The translations under genes were made by a program, and so were the position numbers. This document shows positions 1-13,661 of a DNA stretch of 14,121 bases, one piece after another (position 1 is the stretch's first letter; every line of letters begins with the position of its first letter). The DNA lies in the NCBI GenBank assembly GCA_028818995.1, contig JAPPMR010000652.1, positions 1 to 14,121 on the forward strand, in the 5' to 3' direction. Source of the DNA: Candidatus Poribacteria bacterium. GTDB taxonomy: Bacteria > Poribacteria > WGA-4E > WGA-3G. Under the pieces are notes generated by a model. It ran no database searches. It was not told where the DNA came from and was given only the letters and a program-made list of their open reading frames with translations.

Positions 1-1980
1 TTCCAATCGTAGTCCCGTCATCACCTGCCATTTTGTGGTAAGAGGAATATCAAGCATCAGGTATCCTGAGTAGATATTATGGTCCGCGAGGTAGTTATCA
101 GTTGCAAGAGTTGATTCGCGTAATTCAAAGACGCGTGGGGCAATATTTTCAGTTTGGAAAAGCGTTTCTGGTGGTGAGGACAGATCAACAGCTGTGTCAA
201 CATTATCTGAAGGCAAGAATCTGAATCTACGCACATCAAACGAGCGCGCCCTATCCCGCAGGAGACCGCCAAATTTCAAGAAACCTGTTTCCCTTATCGG
301 TAATTTCCAGTCAACACGAGCGTTGTATTCATCATCTTCAAGGTCAAAGAAAAACCGGCTACCGCTATGTGTGACATCGCGGAATGTGTACGTGCCGTCG
401 CCTCTATCTTCATAAATTGCTTCGCGTGTGTCGGGTTCATCGCGCGCCGCTCGTGAGTAGGTAAGTCTCCATTCCATAGAAAGGTCGGATTGGTCTGATG
501 CTATTTCCCTGGAATCAGAATTTTCTTCTGCAGCAACGTTTTGCAATTCCGGTTCTCCAAAATTGAAACCGTGTGTGCCTGCTAATTGTCCTGAAAAGAG
601 CTGGCGTTCGACATATCTCAAGCGTGCACTTCGCAAGTCTGTATTTCTATCTGCGTTAAAACCTTCCCATGTTCGGGTTTGATCTTCTGCGGCATGTGTT
701 GTAAGTGTCCGCAAACTAAGCAGATGATATGGTGAAAACCGAAGGCTGGCATTGACGACACTACCCCAGTCTACTTCATGCCCACTTTGTTCTATGGCAT
801 AATTGGTTACGGGTGAAAGTGTTTTGTTTAATCCTATGCGGAATGCTTTGCGCACCTGCGTACTATAACTATGGCTATTGCCATAGGAGATTACACCGAG
901 ATAACCGAATTGTTTGCCAAAAATTGTATTGCTGTTACCGATACTGAATTTATAGCCTTGATTTACGGGGATCGCATGTCGTTCAGGGGACCAAACGTTA
1001 GAAAAAGCACGTCCGAATTCTTGGATCTCTTCACGGGTAAATCCTGTTGTAGTAAAACGACCACGTTCGCGGATAGGAATTCCATCCGCTTTTTCTTGAA
1101 TAATTTCTGGTAATCTACGCGAACCGTCATCAAACCCCAAAAAGTCAAGACTTCCACCAGGATATGTCAATCCGTCTGTGCCGGTTGCCTGTGTGTTGAA
1201 ACTTGTTGATAGTGATAGCGACATCATCAATGCTTCGGGAAAATCTTTAGTAAATACTTGCACAGAACCGCCAGCAAACCCACCTGGTTGGTCAGGGGAA
1301 AATGTCTTCACGGTTTGAAGACTCGCAAGCAAACTTGCCGGGAAGATGTCCATTGGGACGACTCGCCGATTCGGTTCCGGACTCGGAATTTCCACATTAT
1401 TGAGAAGTGTGTTACTATAACGTTCACCTAACCCACGTACAAATACGTATTTGCCGCCTACAATACTCACACCTGTTACACGCTTAATTGCTTGTGCCGC
1501 TGAAGAGTCTGGCAACCGACTAATTTCTTCAGTACTGATGCTGTCTTCAATTCGAGAACTCCGCATCCGTTTTTCAAGCAAACCGCGTTCCCCAGATTGG
1601 CTTAAGCGAACCTTCATATTAATCGCATTTAACTTTACAACTTGAGATTCCAATGTAACATGTAACGGTTCCGATAAACCTTGGGCGTTGACTTCAATAT
1701 CAGAAAGTACAGCAGCGTTGTAGAAAGGTGCGGATATTTGAAAAGCATAAGTACCAGGTGGCAATTCTAAAGAAAATGCCCCTGTTTCATCAGTTTTTAC
1801 CTTGATGTTTGTGTCTACAATCTTTATTGTCACATCAACTAACGGTGTATCGGTATCGCTATCTACGACGATACCTGTAATTTTTACGGTCTGTTGTGTT
1901 TCTTGGGCAATAGTCTCTTCCGAAAAGATAAATCCAATAACGAGTATTAAGAACAACAATCCGATGCAAACGCCTCTCAT
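1..1980 (-). CDS. TonB-dependent outer-membrane receptor, N-terminal part (cut by window edge)
   Basis: The minus-strand frame is open for 660 codons and runs off the window at base 1, so the C-terminal barrel is missing. Residues 1-26 form a signal peptide with a hydrophobic core (GLLFLILVIGFIF) and a likely cleavage after TIA. Residues about 33-112 are a CarboxypepD_reg-like beta domain (TGIVVDSDTDTPL, PPGTYAFQIS). Residues about 140-245 are the plug: ISRLPDSSAAQAIKRVTGVS, then VRGLGERYSNTLLN, VPMDIFPASLL and a GGFAGGSVQV end. Barrel-type strands follow. The family imports ligands (siderophores, vitamins, glycans) across the outer membrane using TonB/ExbBD energy; the ligand cannot be told here. 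Start chosen at 1980 because a ribosome-binding site lies just before it; an in-frame ATG at 1992 lacks one. It is divergent from the polyprenol kinase gene. I see no frame break in the visible part. Confidence 0.92.
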   Translation of the reverse strand, partial: MRGVCIGLLFLILVIGFIFSEETIAQETQQTVKITGIVVDSDTDTPLVDVTIKIVDTNIKVKTDETGAFSLELPPGTYAFQISAPFYNAAVLSDIEVNAQGLSEPLHVTLESQVVKLNAINMKVRLSQSGERGLLEKRMRSSRIEDSISTEEISRLPDSSAAQAIKRVTGVSIVGGKYVFVRGLGERYSNTLLNNVEIPSPEPNRRVVPMDIFPASLLASLQTVKTFSPDQPGGFAGGSVQVFTKDFPEALMMSLSLSTSFNTQATGTDGLTYPGGSLDFLGFDDGSRRLPEIIQEKADGIPIRERGRFTTTGFTREEIQEFGRAFSNVWSPERHAIPVNQGYKFSIGNSNTIFGKQFGYLGVISYGNSHSYSTQVRKAFRIGLNKTLSPVTNYAIEQSGHEVDWGSVVNASLRFSPYHLLSLRTLTTHAAEDQTRTWEGFNADRNTDLRSARLRYVERQLFSGQLAGTHGFNFGEPELQNVAAEENSDSREIASDQSDLSMEWRLTYSRAARDEPDTREAIYEDRGDGTYTFRDVTHSGSRFFFDLEDDEYNARVDWKLPIRETGFLKFGGLLRDRARSFDVRRFRFLPSDNVDTAVDLSSPPETLFQTENIAPRVFELRESTLATDNYLADHNIYSGYLMLDIPLTTKWQVMTGLRLE

Positions 1981-1992
1981 TTTTCCTCTCAT
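1981..1992 (-). promoter_or_regulatory. Ribosome-binding site deciding the receptor start
   Basis: On the minus strand this 12-base stretch reads ATG, then AGAGGAAAA, then the chosen ATG at 1980. GAGG lies four bases before the 1980 start. The same purine run is the second to fourth codons of an alternative start at 1992, which has no Shine-Dalgarno-like sequence of its own. The downstream start is therefore preferred. Confidence 0.6.
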
Positions 1993-8934: not shown

Positions 8935-9174
8935 GTCTCTATGTATAATCGTTCAGTTCTCGATTTTTCACATCTTCTGTAGAAGGTGTAGAATCACAAT
9001 TTTCAAAGTCTAAAACGTATTCTAAGCCGTTTAGTTTCTGTTCCCGATGTCATAATGAGTGTATCAGTAATTGGGTTACGGAGAACTGAGTGGTATTGGG
9101 ATAGAGAATTCTGCTTGAAATTTAGGGTATACTGACGTATCATATATACATAATCTTTGTTAGACATAGACGAA
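8935..9174 (+). other. Intergenic region with weak hairpin and promoter
   Basis: 240 bases without a gene. Bases 8970-8989 can fold into a short stem (ACATCTT with AAGGTGT, one G-T pair), but no T-run follows, so a terminator call would be weak. The 3' half holds the promoter candidate at 9115-9143. I see no tRNA, riboswitch or small ORF worth reporting. Confidence 0.5.
9115..9143 (+). promoter_or_regulatory. Sigma70-type promoter candidate of the MFS/spermidine-synthase fusion gene
   Basis: TTGAAA (9115-9120) and TATCAT (9138-9143) are separated by exactly 17 bases. A start near 9150 would give a leader of about 25 bases before the ATG at 9175. A second possible -10 box, TATACT, lies at 9128-9133 but has no matching -35. 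Confidence 0.5.
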
Positions 9175-12100
9175 ATGCGACAAATAAAACTCCTCGTATG
9201 GCTCATCTTTATCCTATCCGGCGCAAGTGCCCTCATCTATGAAGTAATATGGATGCGGCAACTGACGCTTGTCTTCGGCAGCACCGTCTTTGCAACAAGC
9301 ACTGTGCTAACAGCATTTATGGCAGGACTCGCACTTGGCAGCTTCTACTTCGGCAGAAAGATTGATGAAAGCAAAATGTCACCGCTGAAACTTTATGCAT
9401 TCCTCGAAGTGGGTATCGGTGGATTCTGTATTATTTGGCCACTCCTGTTAACCGTCCTCACAGGTCTCTATGTCCTTATCTACCACAACATTACATCCGA
9501 ATTCTATACCCTTTCACTTATCCGTTTTGTCCTGACATTTGGCATACTATTAATTCCCTCTACATTGATGGGTGGTACATTACCGGTATTGACACGATTT
9601 TTTGTGAAAAGATTGGAACAACTCGGCACGAATATCGGCATCTTATATGCGCTGAATACGTTTGGCGCTGTCATCGGAACTGTGGCAGCAGGATTCTTCC
9701 TGATTGAAGCAATGGGTATTACGTGGTCACTCCGAGTGGCAATTGCTATAAATCTTGGTGTTGCGTTGGTTGCGTTGGTATTAGCGCGGCATGCACATAA
9801 GATAGAAAAAGGAGATGAAGAAGAGAAGTTAATAGGGCAGGCGGAATCCGAGACGGATGAACAGGCAGCACAACCCCCGCAGGTTGCAATACCCGGAATA
9901 GGCAAGCAGGAACGGCAATTGGTGCTGTGTGCCATAGGCATATCCGGTTTTTGCGCTTTAGCCTATGAGGTGCTATGGACTCGTATTCTCGTATTCTTTC
10001 TTGGAAGTACCACTTACGCGTTTGCTACGATGCTCGCTGCATTCCTTTTCGGTATAGCATTAGGAAGTATGATTTTAGCGAGATGGGTGGACCGGATAAA
10101 GCAGCCAGTTACTACCTTCGGCATTGTCCAACTCGGTATCGGCCTCTTTGCGCTTGCACTGATGCCGGCATTTGAGCGGTTATATGGAATGACCTACGCG
10201 CTGCAATCAACATTCGGTGGTAGTAGATTCTGGACATTCTTTTCCTGCTTTGTTGTAATGAGTCTCCCTACATTTTTGATGGGAGCGAGTTTTCCACTGG
10301 TTACCAAAATCTATACCGGCAATGCGCGCCAACTCGGTAGAAGCATCGGTAATGTCTATGCTATCAACACAGTCGGAAGTATTTTGGGTGCGTTTTGTGC
10401 GGGGTTTGTGCTAATTCCACTGTTAGGTATTCGTCCAAGCATTGTGTTGACGGTCGCATTGAACACAGGTATCGGGTGTCTGCTTGTTCTGAAAGGATTA
10501 CGTGCGTCTGAAGGTGCTGAAATAGGTGAAACAGAGACAAGAAGTGGAGCTAAATCTGTTTTTCAAGGAATAGGCATCGCCGTGCCGATACTCAATATTG
10601 GGTTAGCAGTCATTTTATTACTGACTTTGAGTCAACCGCTCTTCTTGAAAAGCACAATTTACAAAACGCAACGTCCGGGTGATGAGGTTGTTGATTACAA
10701 GGAGGAGATAGATGCAACGGTAACAACACTGAAGGATGATGAAGGTGTCTTTCGCCTCTATGTAGATGCAAACCAAGCCGCTGATGCTTCTCGCTGGGAC
10801 TCCCCTTCACATCGCGTCATAGCACATCTGCCGTTACTATTACATCCCAATCCGAAACGCGCGCTCGTTGTGGGATTCGGTATGGGTTTGACCTCACATT
10901 CAATCACACAACACGGTGTGCAAGTCGATGCAATAGAATTGTCAGAAGGTGTGATTTCTGCAGCACATAAACATTTCAAACATGTTAATGGTAACATTTT
11001 TGAAAACCGACTATTTAACTATAAGGTTAATGATGGACGCAACCATATCCTCATGACGCAAACTAAATATGATATGATTTCTACTGGAATCATCCATCCG
11101 CTTGTGAGTGCTGGAAGTTCCAATATCTACACCGAAGATTTTTACAAACTGTGCAAAAGAATTCTTACTGAGGATGGCGTGATGTGTCAGTGGGTGCCGT
11201 TGCATCGATTACCAGAGGCACACTATAAGATGATCATCCGCACCTTTATCAATGTCTTTCGTGAAACGACCCTCTGGTACAAATATACCCCTGATTTTGT
11301 GATTCTTATCGGCACTCTTAAACCGCTTTCTATAGATTATAAAAACTTTATGGCACGCAGCCGGATACCGAGTATTCGTGAAGGGCTCGCCGCTGATGAT
11401 TTAGACGGTATGTCGTTACTGGACTCATTTATGATGGGACCGGAGGCAGTCCGAGAGTATGCTGGTGATGGGCCTATCCATACAGATGACCGCCCCAGAT
11501 TGGAATTCTTTAAAGGTAAAGATTTGGTAAGTTCCACAGCACAAAATATTATTGGAATGAAAGAATTTCGACAACCTGTCACGCCATTTCTGAGAAATTA
11601 CGGTTCAACGCTTGAGGAGCAAAAAACAGTGCGAGAAAAGATAGCTACCTACTTTAATGCGACACAGAAATTGATTCTTGGGCAAATCGCTTATGCCAAA
11701 GCACAAATTGCCAATCCCACAGCACAACTTGAAAGTGCAAGTGCCCTAATGAACGAGGCAGTGAGAATTAACCCACAAGACGAAACAATTCGCTATAATT
11801 TTGGCGTTGTTTCAGGTTATATTAACGAAGGTTTCCAAGAAGAACTCCGTCAACTTGAAAAAGAAGCACAACGAAACATAAAACAAAATCCAGACGATAT
11901 TCAGGGATACTTAAATTTGGCGATAGCGTATCAGATGCAGGGAAAACTCAAGGAAGCTACAGCTGAACTTGAAAAAATACTCAAGCGCGATCCCAGCAGA
12001 CCTGAAATATATTTTCTCTTGGGACCGCTATATGAAGAACAAGAACGTTACAAAGATGCACTTCGCACCTACAAACGATTAGAACAGCTTGATGCTGACT

Positions 12101-12390
12101 TACCCGCCCCAATTTTCGCTGCGATGGCAGGAGTCCATCTGCAATTACAGAATGTGGATGAGGCAAAGAAATACGCACAAAAAGGCATAGACGCAAATGC
12201 TTATTCATGGCGTTCACATTACATACTCGGCAGAGTATATCACGCTATGAATCAACCCGAAAAACGACATGAACACTACACAAACGCCCTAAAATACATT
12301 GATCAAGCCATACCTTTTACCCAAAATCCAACAGACTTACAATTTGCTAAAGAAGCTATTCAAAATGAACTTGAACAGATAAAAAAATAG
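9175..12390 (+). CDS. MFS-like / spermidine-synthase-like / TPR fusion protein
   Basis: 1071 residues. The first about 470 residues are two related halves of transmembrane helices; both start alike (SGASALIYEVIWMRQL near 15, SGFCALAYEVLWTRIL near 258), continue with LGSxxF or LGSMIL and end in a basic loop. A further hydrophobic segment is near 470-490. Residues about 495-785 form a spermidine-synthase-like Rossmann domain: ALVVGFGMGLT (563-573), VDAIELSEGV, VNDGRNHIL, HPLVSAGSSNIYTEDFY and TDDRPRLEFF. Residues about 860-1045 are TPR repeats (LNLAIAYQMQGKLKEA, IYFLLGPLYEEQERYKDAL). Where true aminopropyltransferases have a catalytic Asp before the HP motif, this protein reads STGIIHP (Thr637-Gly638), so polyamine synthesis is doubtful. 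Such fusions occur in many bacteria with unknown substrates. ATG 9175 is used; the TTG at 9157 has no better ribosome-binding site. Stop lies 20 bp before aspS, probably cotranscribed. Confidence 0.85.
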   Translation: MRQIKLLVWLIFILSGASALIYEVIWMRQLTLVFGSTVFATSTVLTAFMAGLALGSFYFGRKIDESKMSPLKLYAFLEVGIGGFCIIWPLLLTVLTGLYVLIYHNITSEFYTLSLIRFVLTFGILLIPSTLMGGTLPVLTRFFVKRLEQLGTNIGILYALNTFGAVIGTVAAGFFLIEAMGITWSLRVAIAINLGVALVALVLARHAHKIEKGDEEEKLIGQAESETDEQAAQPPQVAIPGIGKQERQLVLCAIGISGFCALAYEVLWTRILVFFLGSTTYAFATMLAAFLFGIALGSMILARWVDRIKQPVTTFGIVQLGIGLFALALMPAFERLYGMTYALQSTFGGSRFWTFFSCFVVMSLPTFLMGASFPLVTKIYTGNARQLGRSIGNVYAINTVGSILGAFCAGFVLIPLLGIRPSIVLTVALNTGIGCLLVLKGLRASEGAEIGETETRSGAKSVFQGIGIAVPILNIGLAVILLLTLSQPLFLKSTIYKTQRPGDEVVDYKEEIDATVTTLKDDEGVFRLYVDANQAADASRWDSPSHRVIAHLPLLLHPNPKRALVVGFGMGLTSHSITQHGVQVDAIELSEGVISAAHKHFKHVNGNIFENRLFNYKVNDGRNHILMTQTKYDMISTGIIHPLVSAGSSNIYTEDFYKLCKRILTEDGVMCQWVPLHRLPEAHYKMIIRTFINVFRETTLWYKYTPDFVILIGTLKPLSIDYKNFMARSRIPSIREGLAADDLDGMSLLDSFMMGPEAVREYAGDGPIHTDDRPRLEFFKGKDLVSSTAQNIIGMKEFRQPVTPFLRNYGSTLEEQKTVREKIATYFNATQKLILGQIAYAKAQIANPTAQLESASALMNEAVRINPQDETIRYNFGVVSGYINEGFQEELRQLEKEAQRNIKQNPDDIQGYLNLAIAYQMQGKLKEATAELEKILKRDPSRPEIYFLLGPLYEEQERYKDALRTYKRLEQLDADLPAPIFAAMAGVHLQLQNVDEAKKYAQKGIDANAYSWRSHYILGRVYHAMNQPEKRHEHYTNALKYIDQAIPFTQNPTDLQFAKEAIQNELEQIKK

Positions 12391-12410: not shown

Positions 12411-13661
12411 ATGTCCCAAGAATCTTCTCTAAAACGGACACACTATTGTGGTGACCTGCGTTTGAGTGATGCAGGTACAACTGCACAACTCAACGGTTGG
12501 GTGAGACGGCGCCGCGACCATGGCGGTGTGATTTTCGTAGATTTACGCGATAGGACGGGGATCACGCAGGTAGTTTTCGACCCGCAGATTGACGAAAAAG
12601 CGCATGCACTTGCTGATGCTGTCAGAAGTGAGTTTGTCCTAAACGTTAGCGGAACAGTCCGCGAACGAGCTCCTGGCGAACTGCTTTTCCAAGCAGATGC
12701 AGCATTCCAGGCGGAACTCTCTAATGGAACGCCTTTGTCATCTGAATTCCGAGCCTTATTTTCGGATTTGGATACTAAATATACACTGTCTGGTGACATT
12801 CATGTTGATATTCGCGAGAATGATAAACGTTGGCTTCTCACGGATGTAGAAAACAATAGAACTTATGACATAACGCGTGAAGCGGACAGTCTCAGTGTCT
12901 ATCAGGGAACCGTTAATCCAGAACTTGCTACAGGTGAAATTGAAGTTGCTGTCGATTCGCTGAACATCCTCAATACAGCCAAAACACCACCGTTTCCAGT
13001 AGAAGACGATATTGAGGTGGCAGAAGATATTCGGATGCGTTATCGGTTTGTTGATTTGCGCCGACCAGAGATGCAGAAAACGCTTGAGATGCGGCATAAA
13101 GCTGCCCTTGCAGCCCGAAACTATATGAACGAACAGGGATTCCTTGAAATTGAGACACCTATTCTGATGAATAGCACGCCAGAAGGCGCCCGTGATGTTC
13201 TTGTGCCAAGTCGACATTATCCAGGTAAATTCTATGCCTTGCCACAATCGCCGCAACAGTTCAAACAAATTCTGATGATGAGCGGGATTGACCGCTATTT
13301 TCAGATTGCACGCTGTTTTCGCGATGAAGATACTCGCGCAGATAGACAACTTGAGTTTACGCAACTGGATATTGAGATGTCTTTTGCGGGAGTTGACGAT
13401 GTACTTGAGGTAACCGAAGGTTTAATGAAACGGATATTTGAAGATGCGGGTGAAATCCCGGTCCAAACGCCTTTCCTACGGCTACCATACCATGAATCGA
13501 TGGCACGGTTCGGTAATGATAAACCGGATACGCGATTCGATATGGAACTTACAGACCTCTCTGATGTGATGGCAGACTGTGATTTTCAGGTGTTCACTCG
13601 CGCGCTTGCTACTGGTGGGCAGGTAAAAGGTATTTTTCAAGGAAAGACATTGATGATTTGA
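12411..13661 (+). CDS. aspS: Aspartyl-tRNA synthetase, 5' part up to a frame break
   Basis: Charges tRNA-Asp with aspartate in the cytoplasm. Residues 1-89 are the OB-fold anticodon-binding domain (RTHYCGDL, NGWVRRRRDHGGVIFVDLRDR). Residues 90-165 are an insertion (separate entry). The class II core follows: YRFVDLRRPEM, motif 1 around FLEIETPILMNSTPEGARD, ALPQSPQQFKQILMMSG and motif 2 CFRDEDTRADRQLEFTQLDI. The GAD domain starts near residue 355. After VKGIF, at about residue 409, the frame goes wrong and ends FQGKTLMI with a stop at 13661, while the correct sequence resumes in the -1 frame. Read as it stands, the product lacks half of GAD and motif 3 and would be inactive. The nearest Shine-Dalgarno-like GGAGG (12390-12394) is 16 bases before the ATG, unusually far. 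Confidence 0.9.
   Translation: MSQESSLKRTHYCGDLRLSDAGTTAQLNGWVRRRRDHGGVIFVDLRDRTGITQVVFDPQIDEKAHALADAVRSEFVLNVSGTVRERAPGELLFQADAAFQAELSNGTPLSSEFRALFSDLDTKYTLSGDIHVDIRENDKRWLLTDVENNRTYDITREADSLSVYQGTVNPELATGEIEVAVDSLNILNTAKTPPFPVEDDIEVAEDIRMRYRFVDLRRPEMQKTLEMRHKAALAARNYMNEQGFLEIETPILMNSTPEGARDVLVPSRHYPGKFYALPQSPQQFKQILMMSGIDRYFQIARCFRDEDTRADRQLEFTQLDIEMSFAGVDDVLEVTEGLMKRIFEDAGEIPVQTPFLRLPYHESMARFGNDKPDTRFDMELTDLSDVMADCDFQVFTRALATGGQVKGIFQGKTLMI
12678..12905 (+). other. 76-codon in-frame insertion within the aspS anticodon-binding domain
   Basis: In ordinary bacterial AspRS the strand GTVRxR runs within a few residues into a VNPxxxTGEIEV-type segment. Here GTVRERAPG is followed by 76 extra residues before GTVNPELATGEIEV. 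The insert starts ELLFQADAAFQAELSNG, has a helix-like LSSEFRALFSDLDTKYTLSG, then two strand-like pieces (IHVDIRENDKRWLLTDVENN and RTYDITREADSLSVYQ). It is acidic, keeps the frame and contains no stop. The layout, a short helix followed by a beta hairpin, looks like a small module of its own. I do not recognise it as a named domain. Confidence 0.75.

What the first reader, a model, noticed from the sequence alone, without database searches (positions are those of the whole stretch)
12678..12905. 76-residue in-frame module inserted in the OB fold of aspartyl-tRNA synthetase
Seen: between GTVRERAPG and GTVNPELATGEIEV, which are nearly adjacent in ordinary bacterial AspRS, there are 76 extra residues with a helix-plus-beta-hairpin look (LSSEFRALF, KRWLLTDVENNRTYDI, SLSVYQ). 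Known: the OB fold reads the tRNA-Asp anticodon and this loop is normally short; in-frame peptide-coding repeats such as Rickettsia palindromic elements invade essential genes in other bacteria. Inference: this is either a lineage-specific AspRS domain or a copy of a mobile peptide-coding element scattered among proteins of this organism.
Basis: partly seen in the sequence, partly recalled or inferred. Interest (0 to 1): 0.75.

Follow-up and report, generated by a model that had tools for sequence, protein, structure and literature searches.

The report
Transposed protein domain invading Poribacteria genes
The extra piece in this bacterium's aspartyl-tRNA synthetase is one copy of a small, probably self-folding protein domain that appears to have jumped as DNA into the reading frames of dozens of unrelated genes in a phylum of uncultured, often sponge-dwelling bacteria, apparently without breaking them.

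Summary
In detail: residues 90-165 of this Poribacteria AspRS are an in-frame insert in the anticodon-binding OB fold, present in 53 of 56 informative Poribacteria AspRS loci.

It is not AspRS-specific. A profile finds the same ~72-residue module in unrelated proteins of 77 of 84 genomes of the phylum, 1-41 matches each; hosts include LolD-, CtpA-, BamA-, NuoJ-, sigma-54- and heme A synthase-like proteins.

Evidence for DNA insertion: a 7-8-nt target-site-duplication signal (8-mer identity 0.44-0.48 against 0.28-0.30 permuted, one copy for each of 40 host groups; outer control windows null); empty sites in CtpA relatives; nested copies; unsaturated synonymous sites between hosts. It is predicted to fold alone (pLDDT 90), is constrained in AspRS (omega 0.135) and matches no Pfam, NCBIfam or PDB sequence family.

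The mobilising enzyme is unknown. It works like Rickettsia palindromic elements but lacks the palindrome, is longer, and was seen only in long open frames in three genomes examined. The window's AspRS is also frameshifted by a 22-nt gap.

The parts
12411..13661 (+). aspS (AspRS) open frame, host gene; it ends early because of a 22-nt gap near 13630
12678..12902 (+). the module: 75 residues, full-length match (1-72) to the profile of the dispersed family
   Evidence: 79 bits, E 2.5e-24; the only clear match in the six frames of the window (next best E 0.9)
12672..12679 (+). left target-site-duplication position (inferred remnant, cctggcga)
   Evidence: position defined on other copies; here only 3 of 8 bases match the right side (read by eye), about the chance level; inferred only
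12903..12910 (+). right target-site-duplication position (inferred remnant, cagggaac)
   Evidence: as above
12680..12902 (+). inferred mobile DNA unit (223 nt here; modal length 214 nt in the copies measured)
   Evidence: 29 of 64 copies are 214 nt, range 208-247; lengths step by 3 by construction, because the frame is open
13629..13631 (+). junction of the 22-nt gap relative to L051 and L049 (placement ambiguous by a base); frameshift

Best explanation
The insert is one copy of a dispersed, non-autonomous mobile DNA element of about 214 bp that carries no gene of its own but is open in one frame and encodes a small alpha/beta domain. Supported here: copies sit in many unrelated genes across Poribacteria and carry the footprint of a staggered cut, a 7-8-bp target-site duplication, so that the repeat period in modal copies is 222 nt (74 codons) and the host frame is kept. 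Inferred: because the encoded peptide folds by itself, copies that land in phase in a surface loop are tolerated even in important enzymes, whereas copies in other phases, strands or places are lost or decay; the element therefore persists as a folded passenger inside host proteins. In AspRS the insertion is old, sits in an OB-fold loop that by position faces the anticodon (recalled geometry), and has been held by purifying selection. Movement itself is probably by a transposase supplied in trans, not identified here.
For: Dispersal: matches in other frames of 15 of 15 and 77 of 84 genomes. Hosts: 17 of 20 scanned gave a Pfam hit at 1e-5, of many different families; 99 usable copies fall into 40 host groups by flank BLAST. 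LolD: module at residues 71-141, while query 13-80 aligns to chain 5-72 and query 142-301 to chain 60-220 of one LolD structure, so nothing of LolD is missing. TSD: the 25 best of 3610 window combinations all share one register, top z 10.3; excess at 7 consecutive positions, z 2.1-4.8; 64 copies 0.441 vs 0.290, p=5e-5, the floor of 20,000 permutations; G028 28 copies p=5e-5, G012 16 copies p=0.002, rest 20 copies p=0.0007; outer windows p=0.66; one copy per host group, 10 draws of 40, 0.444-0.478 vs 0.283-0.297, each at the floor. At 9-mer level 21 of 64 copies have 5 or more matches, against 8.9% of mismatched pairs, and 4 of 64 have 7 or more, against 0.3%. CtpA: filled SI-NER-[module]-NEK-GVTP in G028; 25 of the 29 other loci fetched read as empty, 4 not read by the pattern. 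Nested copies: P0076, L153. Synonymous codons shared among 33 G028 copies 0.494 vs 0.373 (sd 0.005) permuted. AF2 of the module alone pLDDT 90, pTM 0.75. Omega in AspRS 0.135 (52 usable pairs of 11 sequences) vs 0.024 in flanks.
Against: No mobilising enzyme found; IS66 transposase, suggested by the end sequence, was found in 1 of 6 genomes and not in G028, the richest; other transposase families were not searched. Terminal inverted repeats rest on consensus only: within-copy end matching 5.13 vs 4.95 of 12 across copies, and in G028 5.36 vs 5.43. The TSD signal is decayed: 6 of 64 copies match at 0 or 1 of 9, and window combinations outside the bins holding the main register reach z 4.5. The first position of an 8-nt duplication has no excess (z 0.6), so the length is 7 or 8. 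No very young copies: apart from two pairs with near-identical hosts, the best nucleotide identity among the pairs printed is 0.75. No copy outside a long open frame among 85 matches in three genomes, which a randomly inserting element should show unless selection or decay removes them. The AspRS copy keeps only 3 of 8 duplication bases. The outer pieces of the nested copies are short and weak (i-E 0.12 in P0076, 0.24 in L153). The protein search with the AspRS insert found only AspRS (74 of 74), and one with a G028 copy found 3 proteins. What the module does for its hosts is unknown.
Confidence: 0.83

Rival explanations
1. A lineage-specific AspRS domain that tunes recognition of tRNA-Asp and tRNA-Asn anticodons, not mobile.
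For: Kept in 53 of 56 informative Poribacteria AspRS loci; omega about 0.14; lies in the OB-fold domain that binds the anticodon. No AsnRS above the family cut-off in 84 genomes, so this AspRS probably charges tRNA-Asn too.
Against: The same module is in many unrelated proteins with a target-site-duplication signal. The 3 Poribacteria whose AspRS lacks the module (G013-G015) also have no AsnRS above the cut-off (their sub-threshold scores, 124-136 bits, are among the highest), so the module does not look needed for that job. A later co-opted role is not excluded.
Confidence: 0.07
2. An ordinary small protein domain spread by domain shuffling (recombination, gene fusion) and kept for a function, such as binding a common partner.
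For: The module is predicted to fold, is conserved at W, D, L and Y positions across hosts, is under purifying selection, occurs at low copy in other phyla (14 of 883 genomes) and sits in open frames.
Against: 7-8-nt duplications, a modal length, nested copies and insertion inside compact or membrane domains (LolD, NuoJ-like, CtaA-like) are signs of DNA insertion, not of fusion at domain borders.
Confidence: 0.08
3. A self-removing element (intein or translational-bypass type) so that mature hosts lack the module.
For: It is found in important proteins with little visible harm to the frame.
Against: No intein or Hint family match (37 members scanned, best E 0.013 to unrelated families); no invariant Cys, Ser or Asn at the ends. 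The reading frame continues through, so bypass is not needed.
Confidence: 0.02

Closest known systems
Rickettsia palindromic elements (RPE)
   Same: Short repeat inserted in frame in unrelated, often conserved genes; the one product described there (guanylate kinase) stays active with changed substrate affinity (PMC2229807, passages read).
   Different: RPEs are 105-146 bp with long stem-loops, also intergenic, TSD marked '?' in that paper's table. This unit is about 214 bp, the longest exact inverted repeat in its G028 consensus is 7 nt, it has a 7-8-nt TSD signal, encodes a predicted globular domain and was seen only in long open frames in three genomes.
Other small mobile sequences with open frames (ERIC/RU-1, YPAL/RU-2, 107-bp Correia/NEMIS; archaeal repeats cited there)
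   Same: Small, no transposase, several with TSDs, some copies fused in frame to genes (PMC2229807, passages).
   Different: Those are found in intergenic as well as intragenic DNA and form stem-loops (same passages). Here the examined copies are in frame and share one conserved, predicted fold; a parent transposon is not known.
Inteins
   Same: In-frame passengers in conserved proteins.
   Different: No Hint family match, no fixed splice residues, smaller than a mini-intein (recalled); predicted to stay in the protein.
Lineage-specific insertion domains of aminoacyl-tRNA synthetases
   Same: Extra domain in a loop of the AspRS anticodon-binding fold.
   Different: The same unit is in dozens of other proteins, so its origin is not AspRS-specific.

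Membership tests
Rickettsia palindromic element | In-frame peptide-coding insertion in unrelated genes | tested here: met
Rickettsia palindromic element | Palindromic, long stem-loop, 105-146 bp | tested here: not met
   longest exact inverted repeat in the G028 consensus is 7 nt; modal length 214 nt
Rickettsia palindromic element | Copies also in intergenic DNA and RNA genes | tested here: inconclusive
   85 matches in three genomes, all in open frames of 162 aa or more, one with a stop; one search lists two weak partial matches in short frames (63 and 111 aa). Detection is by protein profile, so decayed copies would be missed
MITE / non-autonomous transposable element | Target-site duplication of fixed length | tested here: met
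   (7-8 nt, statistical); one host with empty sites
MITE / non-autonomous transposable element | Terminal inverted repeats | tested here: inconclusive
   consensus ends GTTrCTGTTTAG and GTAAATGTTnAG; within-copy matching not above across-copy
MITE / non-autonomous transposable element | Related autonomous transposon in the genome | tested here: inconclusive
   IS66 transposase in 1 of 6 genomes, not in G028; other families not searched
MITE / non-autonomous transposable element | Multiple dispersed copies sharing DNA sequence | tested here: met
Intein | Hint fold and splice-junction residues | tested here: not met
   no Hint or intein family in 37 members; no invariant Cys, Ser or Asn at the ends
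AspRS-specific domain | Present only in AspRS | tested here: not met
Known protein domain family | Match to Pfam, NCBIfam, PADLOC, PHROGs or PDB sequence | tested here: not met
   best single-member E 0.013 (Pfam), 0.036 (NCBIfam), 0.0053 (PHROGs, one member of 37), none (PADLOC at 0.01), 0.18 (PDB)
Known protein fold | Structural match in PDB | tested here: inconclusive

The most novel reading that the evidence does not exclude
A class of transposable element whose whole payload is a self-folding domain read through by the host gene: it survives by being a harmless folded passenger in host proteins, so its selective arena is the proteome rather than intergenic DNA, and it supplies a phylum with a steady flow of ready-made domain insertions, some later kept, as in the anticodon-binding domain of AspRS.
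Probability: 0.45. Interest if true: 0.9.

Novelty: new variant of a known kind. Interest (0 to 1): 0.8.

Why it matters
It would give a natural, phylum-wide set of domain insertions in unrelated proteins, with empty-site controls, for asking how proteins tolerate and later exploit a new domain. It suggests that a mobile element can reduce its cost by encoding a foldable unit. It also means that annotations, alignments and structure models of Poribacteria proteins contain a repeated foreign module that the libraries searched here do not name, and that an AspRS which probably serves two tRNAs works with a 76-residue domain in its anticodon-binding fold.

Tried and rejected
Searching the window's own genome: none is held. 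Protein search with the AspRS insert: 74 of 74 hits carried AspRS domains, which alone would have supported the wrong reading; that tool needs shared 5-residue words and a matching protein length. A second search with a G028 copy gave 3 proteins: a flagellar rod protein, an M50 protease and a short protein with nested copies.

Mobile carriers: no relative in viral contigs (6 pattern matches, none confirmed), none in phages, 2 plasmid records with partial or weak matches, Xenorhabdus and Nostoc; the Nostoc match lies in a 77-aa frame with no listed gene. Other phyla: 7 of 299, 1 of 188, 1 of 198 and 5 of 198 genomes had a match at E 0.001 or better, 1-3 matches each, several partial and inside very large proteins, four of them strong (E 4e-12 to 2e-17). 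The first of these groups was centred on G091, already known to match (1 of 7). Not pursued.

Literature: nothing describing this module among the papers listed (0 papers); these lists are capped (5-20 rows shown), one search's rows were off topic, and the library lacks most subscription journals.

Rows dropped: the 64-copy TSD set takes copies from loci L096-L174 with near-full profile coverage and at least 45 nt of frame on both sides, after dropping 6 with plainly orthologous or paralogous hosts; AspRS copies and the rest of L066-L095 were left out. That set still holds several groups of orthologous hosts and tandem copies, so repeats the test on 99 copies (AspRS included) reduced to one per host group (40 groups, 10 random draws). 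In one search, 2 near-identical copies were dropped from 35. In one search the pattern could not read 4 of 30 CtpA loci, and only the 30 best loci of 83 matching genomes were fetched.

Full report
What is in the window. The window is from a Candidatus Poribacteria genome: the AspRS gene is closest to Poribacteria MAGs (L051 96%, L049 and L001 94% identity). The open frame 12411-13661 is AspRS. Residues 90-165 (12678-12905) are extra relative to solved bacterial AspRS: in 6hhv, residues 79 and 82 flank the gap that holds query residues 87-167 of the near-identical relative P0002. Of 58 Poribacteria loci found with AspRS, 2 cover only the far part; of the other 56, 53 carry the insert and 3 (L053-L055) have the short loop RGEGA-NPNL. 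One of the six search patterns lies inside the insert, so this ratio leans towards carriers.

Not an AspRS domain. A profile made from AspRS inserts only (A1) has matches in frames other than aspS in each of the 15 Poribacteria genomes searched (4 to 19 matches each at E up to 1), including the three whose AspRS lacks it. A broader profile (A2, 37 copies) matched 77 of 84 genomes of the phylum at E 0.001 or better, with 1 to 41 matches each; 7 genomes had none. The window itself has one clear match. The hosts are diverse. Twenty were scanned with Pfam and 17 gave a hit: an ABC ATPase (LolD-like), S41 protease (CtpA-like), O-antigen ligase (two), sigma-54, heme A synthase (COX15-CtaA), a PolyA_pol head-domain protein, a nucleotide cyclase, a flagellar hook/rod protein, an M50 protease (RseP-like), an M23 peptidase, an ABC exporter, a DUF748/AsmA protein, an Omp85 protein with POTRA repeats (BamA-like), NADH dehydrogenase chain 6 (NuoJ-like), a histidine kinase and a Na/Ca exchanger. 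The names in brackets are my reading of the families. In LolD the module (71-141) splits the nucleotide-binding domain shortly after Walker A, and both flanks align to one LolD structure with nothing missing between them (query 13-80 to chain 5-72, query 142-301 to chain 60-220).

Evidence of DNA-level insertion. First, I compared the DNA left and right of the module in 64 copies. One register stands out: the 25 best of 3610 window combinations all belong to it, top z 10.3; outside the bins that contain it the highest z is 4.5. The excess covers seven consecutive positions (z 2.1 to 4.8), with the eighth at z 0.6 and no comparable excess beyond, so the duplication is 7 or 8 nt; I use 8. The 8-mer identity is 0.441 against 0.290 for permuted pairing (p=5e-5, the floor of 20,000 permutations); it repeats in G028 (28 copies, p=5e-5), G012 (16, p=0.002) and the remaining 20 (p=0.0007), while windows further out show nothing (p=0.66). 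Because some hosts in that set are orthologous, I repeated the test with one copy for each of 40 host groups (from 99 copies, AspRS included): ten random draws gave 0.444-0.478 against 0.283-0.297, each at the permutation floor. Some copies keep nearly perfect duplications (GATCGTGCG/GATCATGCG, AACGAAAGA/AACGAAAAG); 6 of 64 show 0 or 1 match in 9. Second, the modal unit is 214 nt (29 of 64), so the repeat period is 222 nt, 74 codons; that it is a multiple of three follows from the open frame and is not independent evidence. Third, in CtpA the filled gene of G028 reads SI-NER-[module]-NEK-GVTP, and 25 of the 29 other loci fetched read as empty with the triplet once, such as SINEKGIEP (4 not read by the pattern). 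Fourth, modules are nested: P0076 has outer positions 4-55, then a complete inner copy 2-72, then outer 58-72 (the last piece weak, i-E 0.12); L153 shows 3-29 (weak, 0.24), 2-72, 27-72. Fifth, copies in different hosts of G028 share synonymous codons (0.494 against 0.373, sd 0.005, when codons are permuted within copies; 33 copies), so they share DNA ancestry that is not saturated.

What the module is. The family consensus is ELLFSVDLELQSDLDNGKLSEELRQEFEDNGISLSQNVTVSVKEKGKRWLITDKENERTYTIRKEEDKLNVY; one Trp is invariant in 91 copies. AlphaFold2 gives a confident small alpha/beta domain (strand, two helices, four strands; pLDDT 90, pTM 0.75), and the same region is confident (block means 81-91) inside an otherwise poor AspRS model (mean 63.9). 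No Pfam, NCBIfam, PADLOC, PHROGs or PDB sequence match of weight and no credible fold match. In AspRS the module evolves faster than its host but under constraint (median omega 0.135 over 52 usable pairs of 11 sequences, against 0.024 in the flanks).

Where copies sit. In three genomes with 85 matches, all lie in open frames of 162 aa or more and one has a stop, although the search reads through stops and would report copies in short frames. In the capped list two weak partial matches lie in short frames (63 and 111 aa). I infer that out-of-phase and intergenic copies are lost or decay beyond recognition. Outside Poribacteria, 14 of 883 genomes sampled from four phyla have 1-3 matches each, often in very large proteins, so the domain is older than the phylum or has moved between phyla.

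AspRS in particular. None of 84 genomes has an AsnRS above the family cut-off (7 of 14 control genomes do); 38 have sub-threshold matches of roughly 107-136 bits that I take to be other class II synthetases, so a divergent AsnRS is not excluded. The AspRS therefore probably serves tRNA-Asn as well. From recall, not from a paper read here, the inserted loop is where residues that separate discriminating from non-discriminating bacterial AspRS lie. So the insertion sits at a sensitive place, yet relatives without it appear to share the same tRNA situation, so the simplest view is tolerance, with later co-option possible. GatCAB was not tested.

Mechanism and limits. The ends read GTTrCTGTTTAG and, reverse-complemented, GTAAATGTTnAG, an imperfect inverted repeat at consensus level only. 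From recall, GTAA ends and 8-bp duplications are typical of IS66, but IS66 transposase was found in only 1 of 6 genomes searched and not in G028. I therefore claim transposition by an unknown enzyme, not a family. Apart from two pairs with near-identical hosts, no printed pair of copies exceeds 0.75 nucleotide identity, so current activity is not shown.

Comparison. The closest described kind is the Rickettsia palindromic element and other small mobile sequences with open frames (PMC2229807, passages read). This family shares the in-frame invasion of conserved genes, but not the palindrome or the size, and it adds a foldable domain and a measured target-site duplication. The papers listed showed no title or abstract start describing it; PMC3909097 on Poribacteria genomes does not mention it in the passages I read.

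Noticed in passing
window 13629-13661: The AspRS frame is broken by a 22-nt gap relative to L051 and L049 (GGQVKGI, then frameshift to a stop at 13661); not seen in those two relatives, so either an assembly error or a broken allele.
   Followed up: yes
84 genomes of the phylum: No asparaginyl-tRNA synthetase above the family cut-off, suggesting phylum-wide use of the indirect Asn-tRNA pathway with a non-discriminating AspRS.
   Followed up: partly
L096, L116, L125, L130, L139, L174: Some host proteins hold two or three modules in a row or close together, beside the nested cases.
   Followed up: partly
L175 2009-4480 (Xenorhabdus bovienii plasmid), L190-L193 and others: Relatives of the module outside Poribacteria, in a pentapeptide-repeat protein and in other large proteins, at low copy.
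   Followed up: partly
L041 3241-3510, L042 3244-3582: AspRS modules with roughly 11-34 extra residues, so the module keeps growing in some lineages.
   Followed up: no
window 9157-12390: Large protein joining MFS-like membrane segments, a spermidine-synthase domain and TPRs.
   Followed up: no
window 1-1992 (-): Open-ended frame that reads like a TonB-dependent outer-membrane receptor with a carboxypeptidase-like N-terminal domain (my reading; not searched).
   Followed up: no
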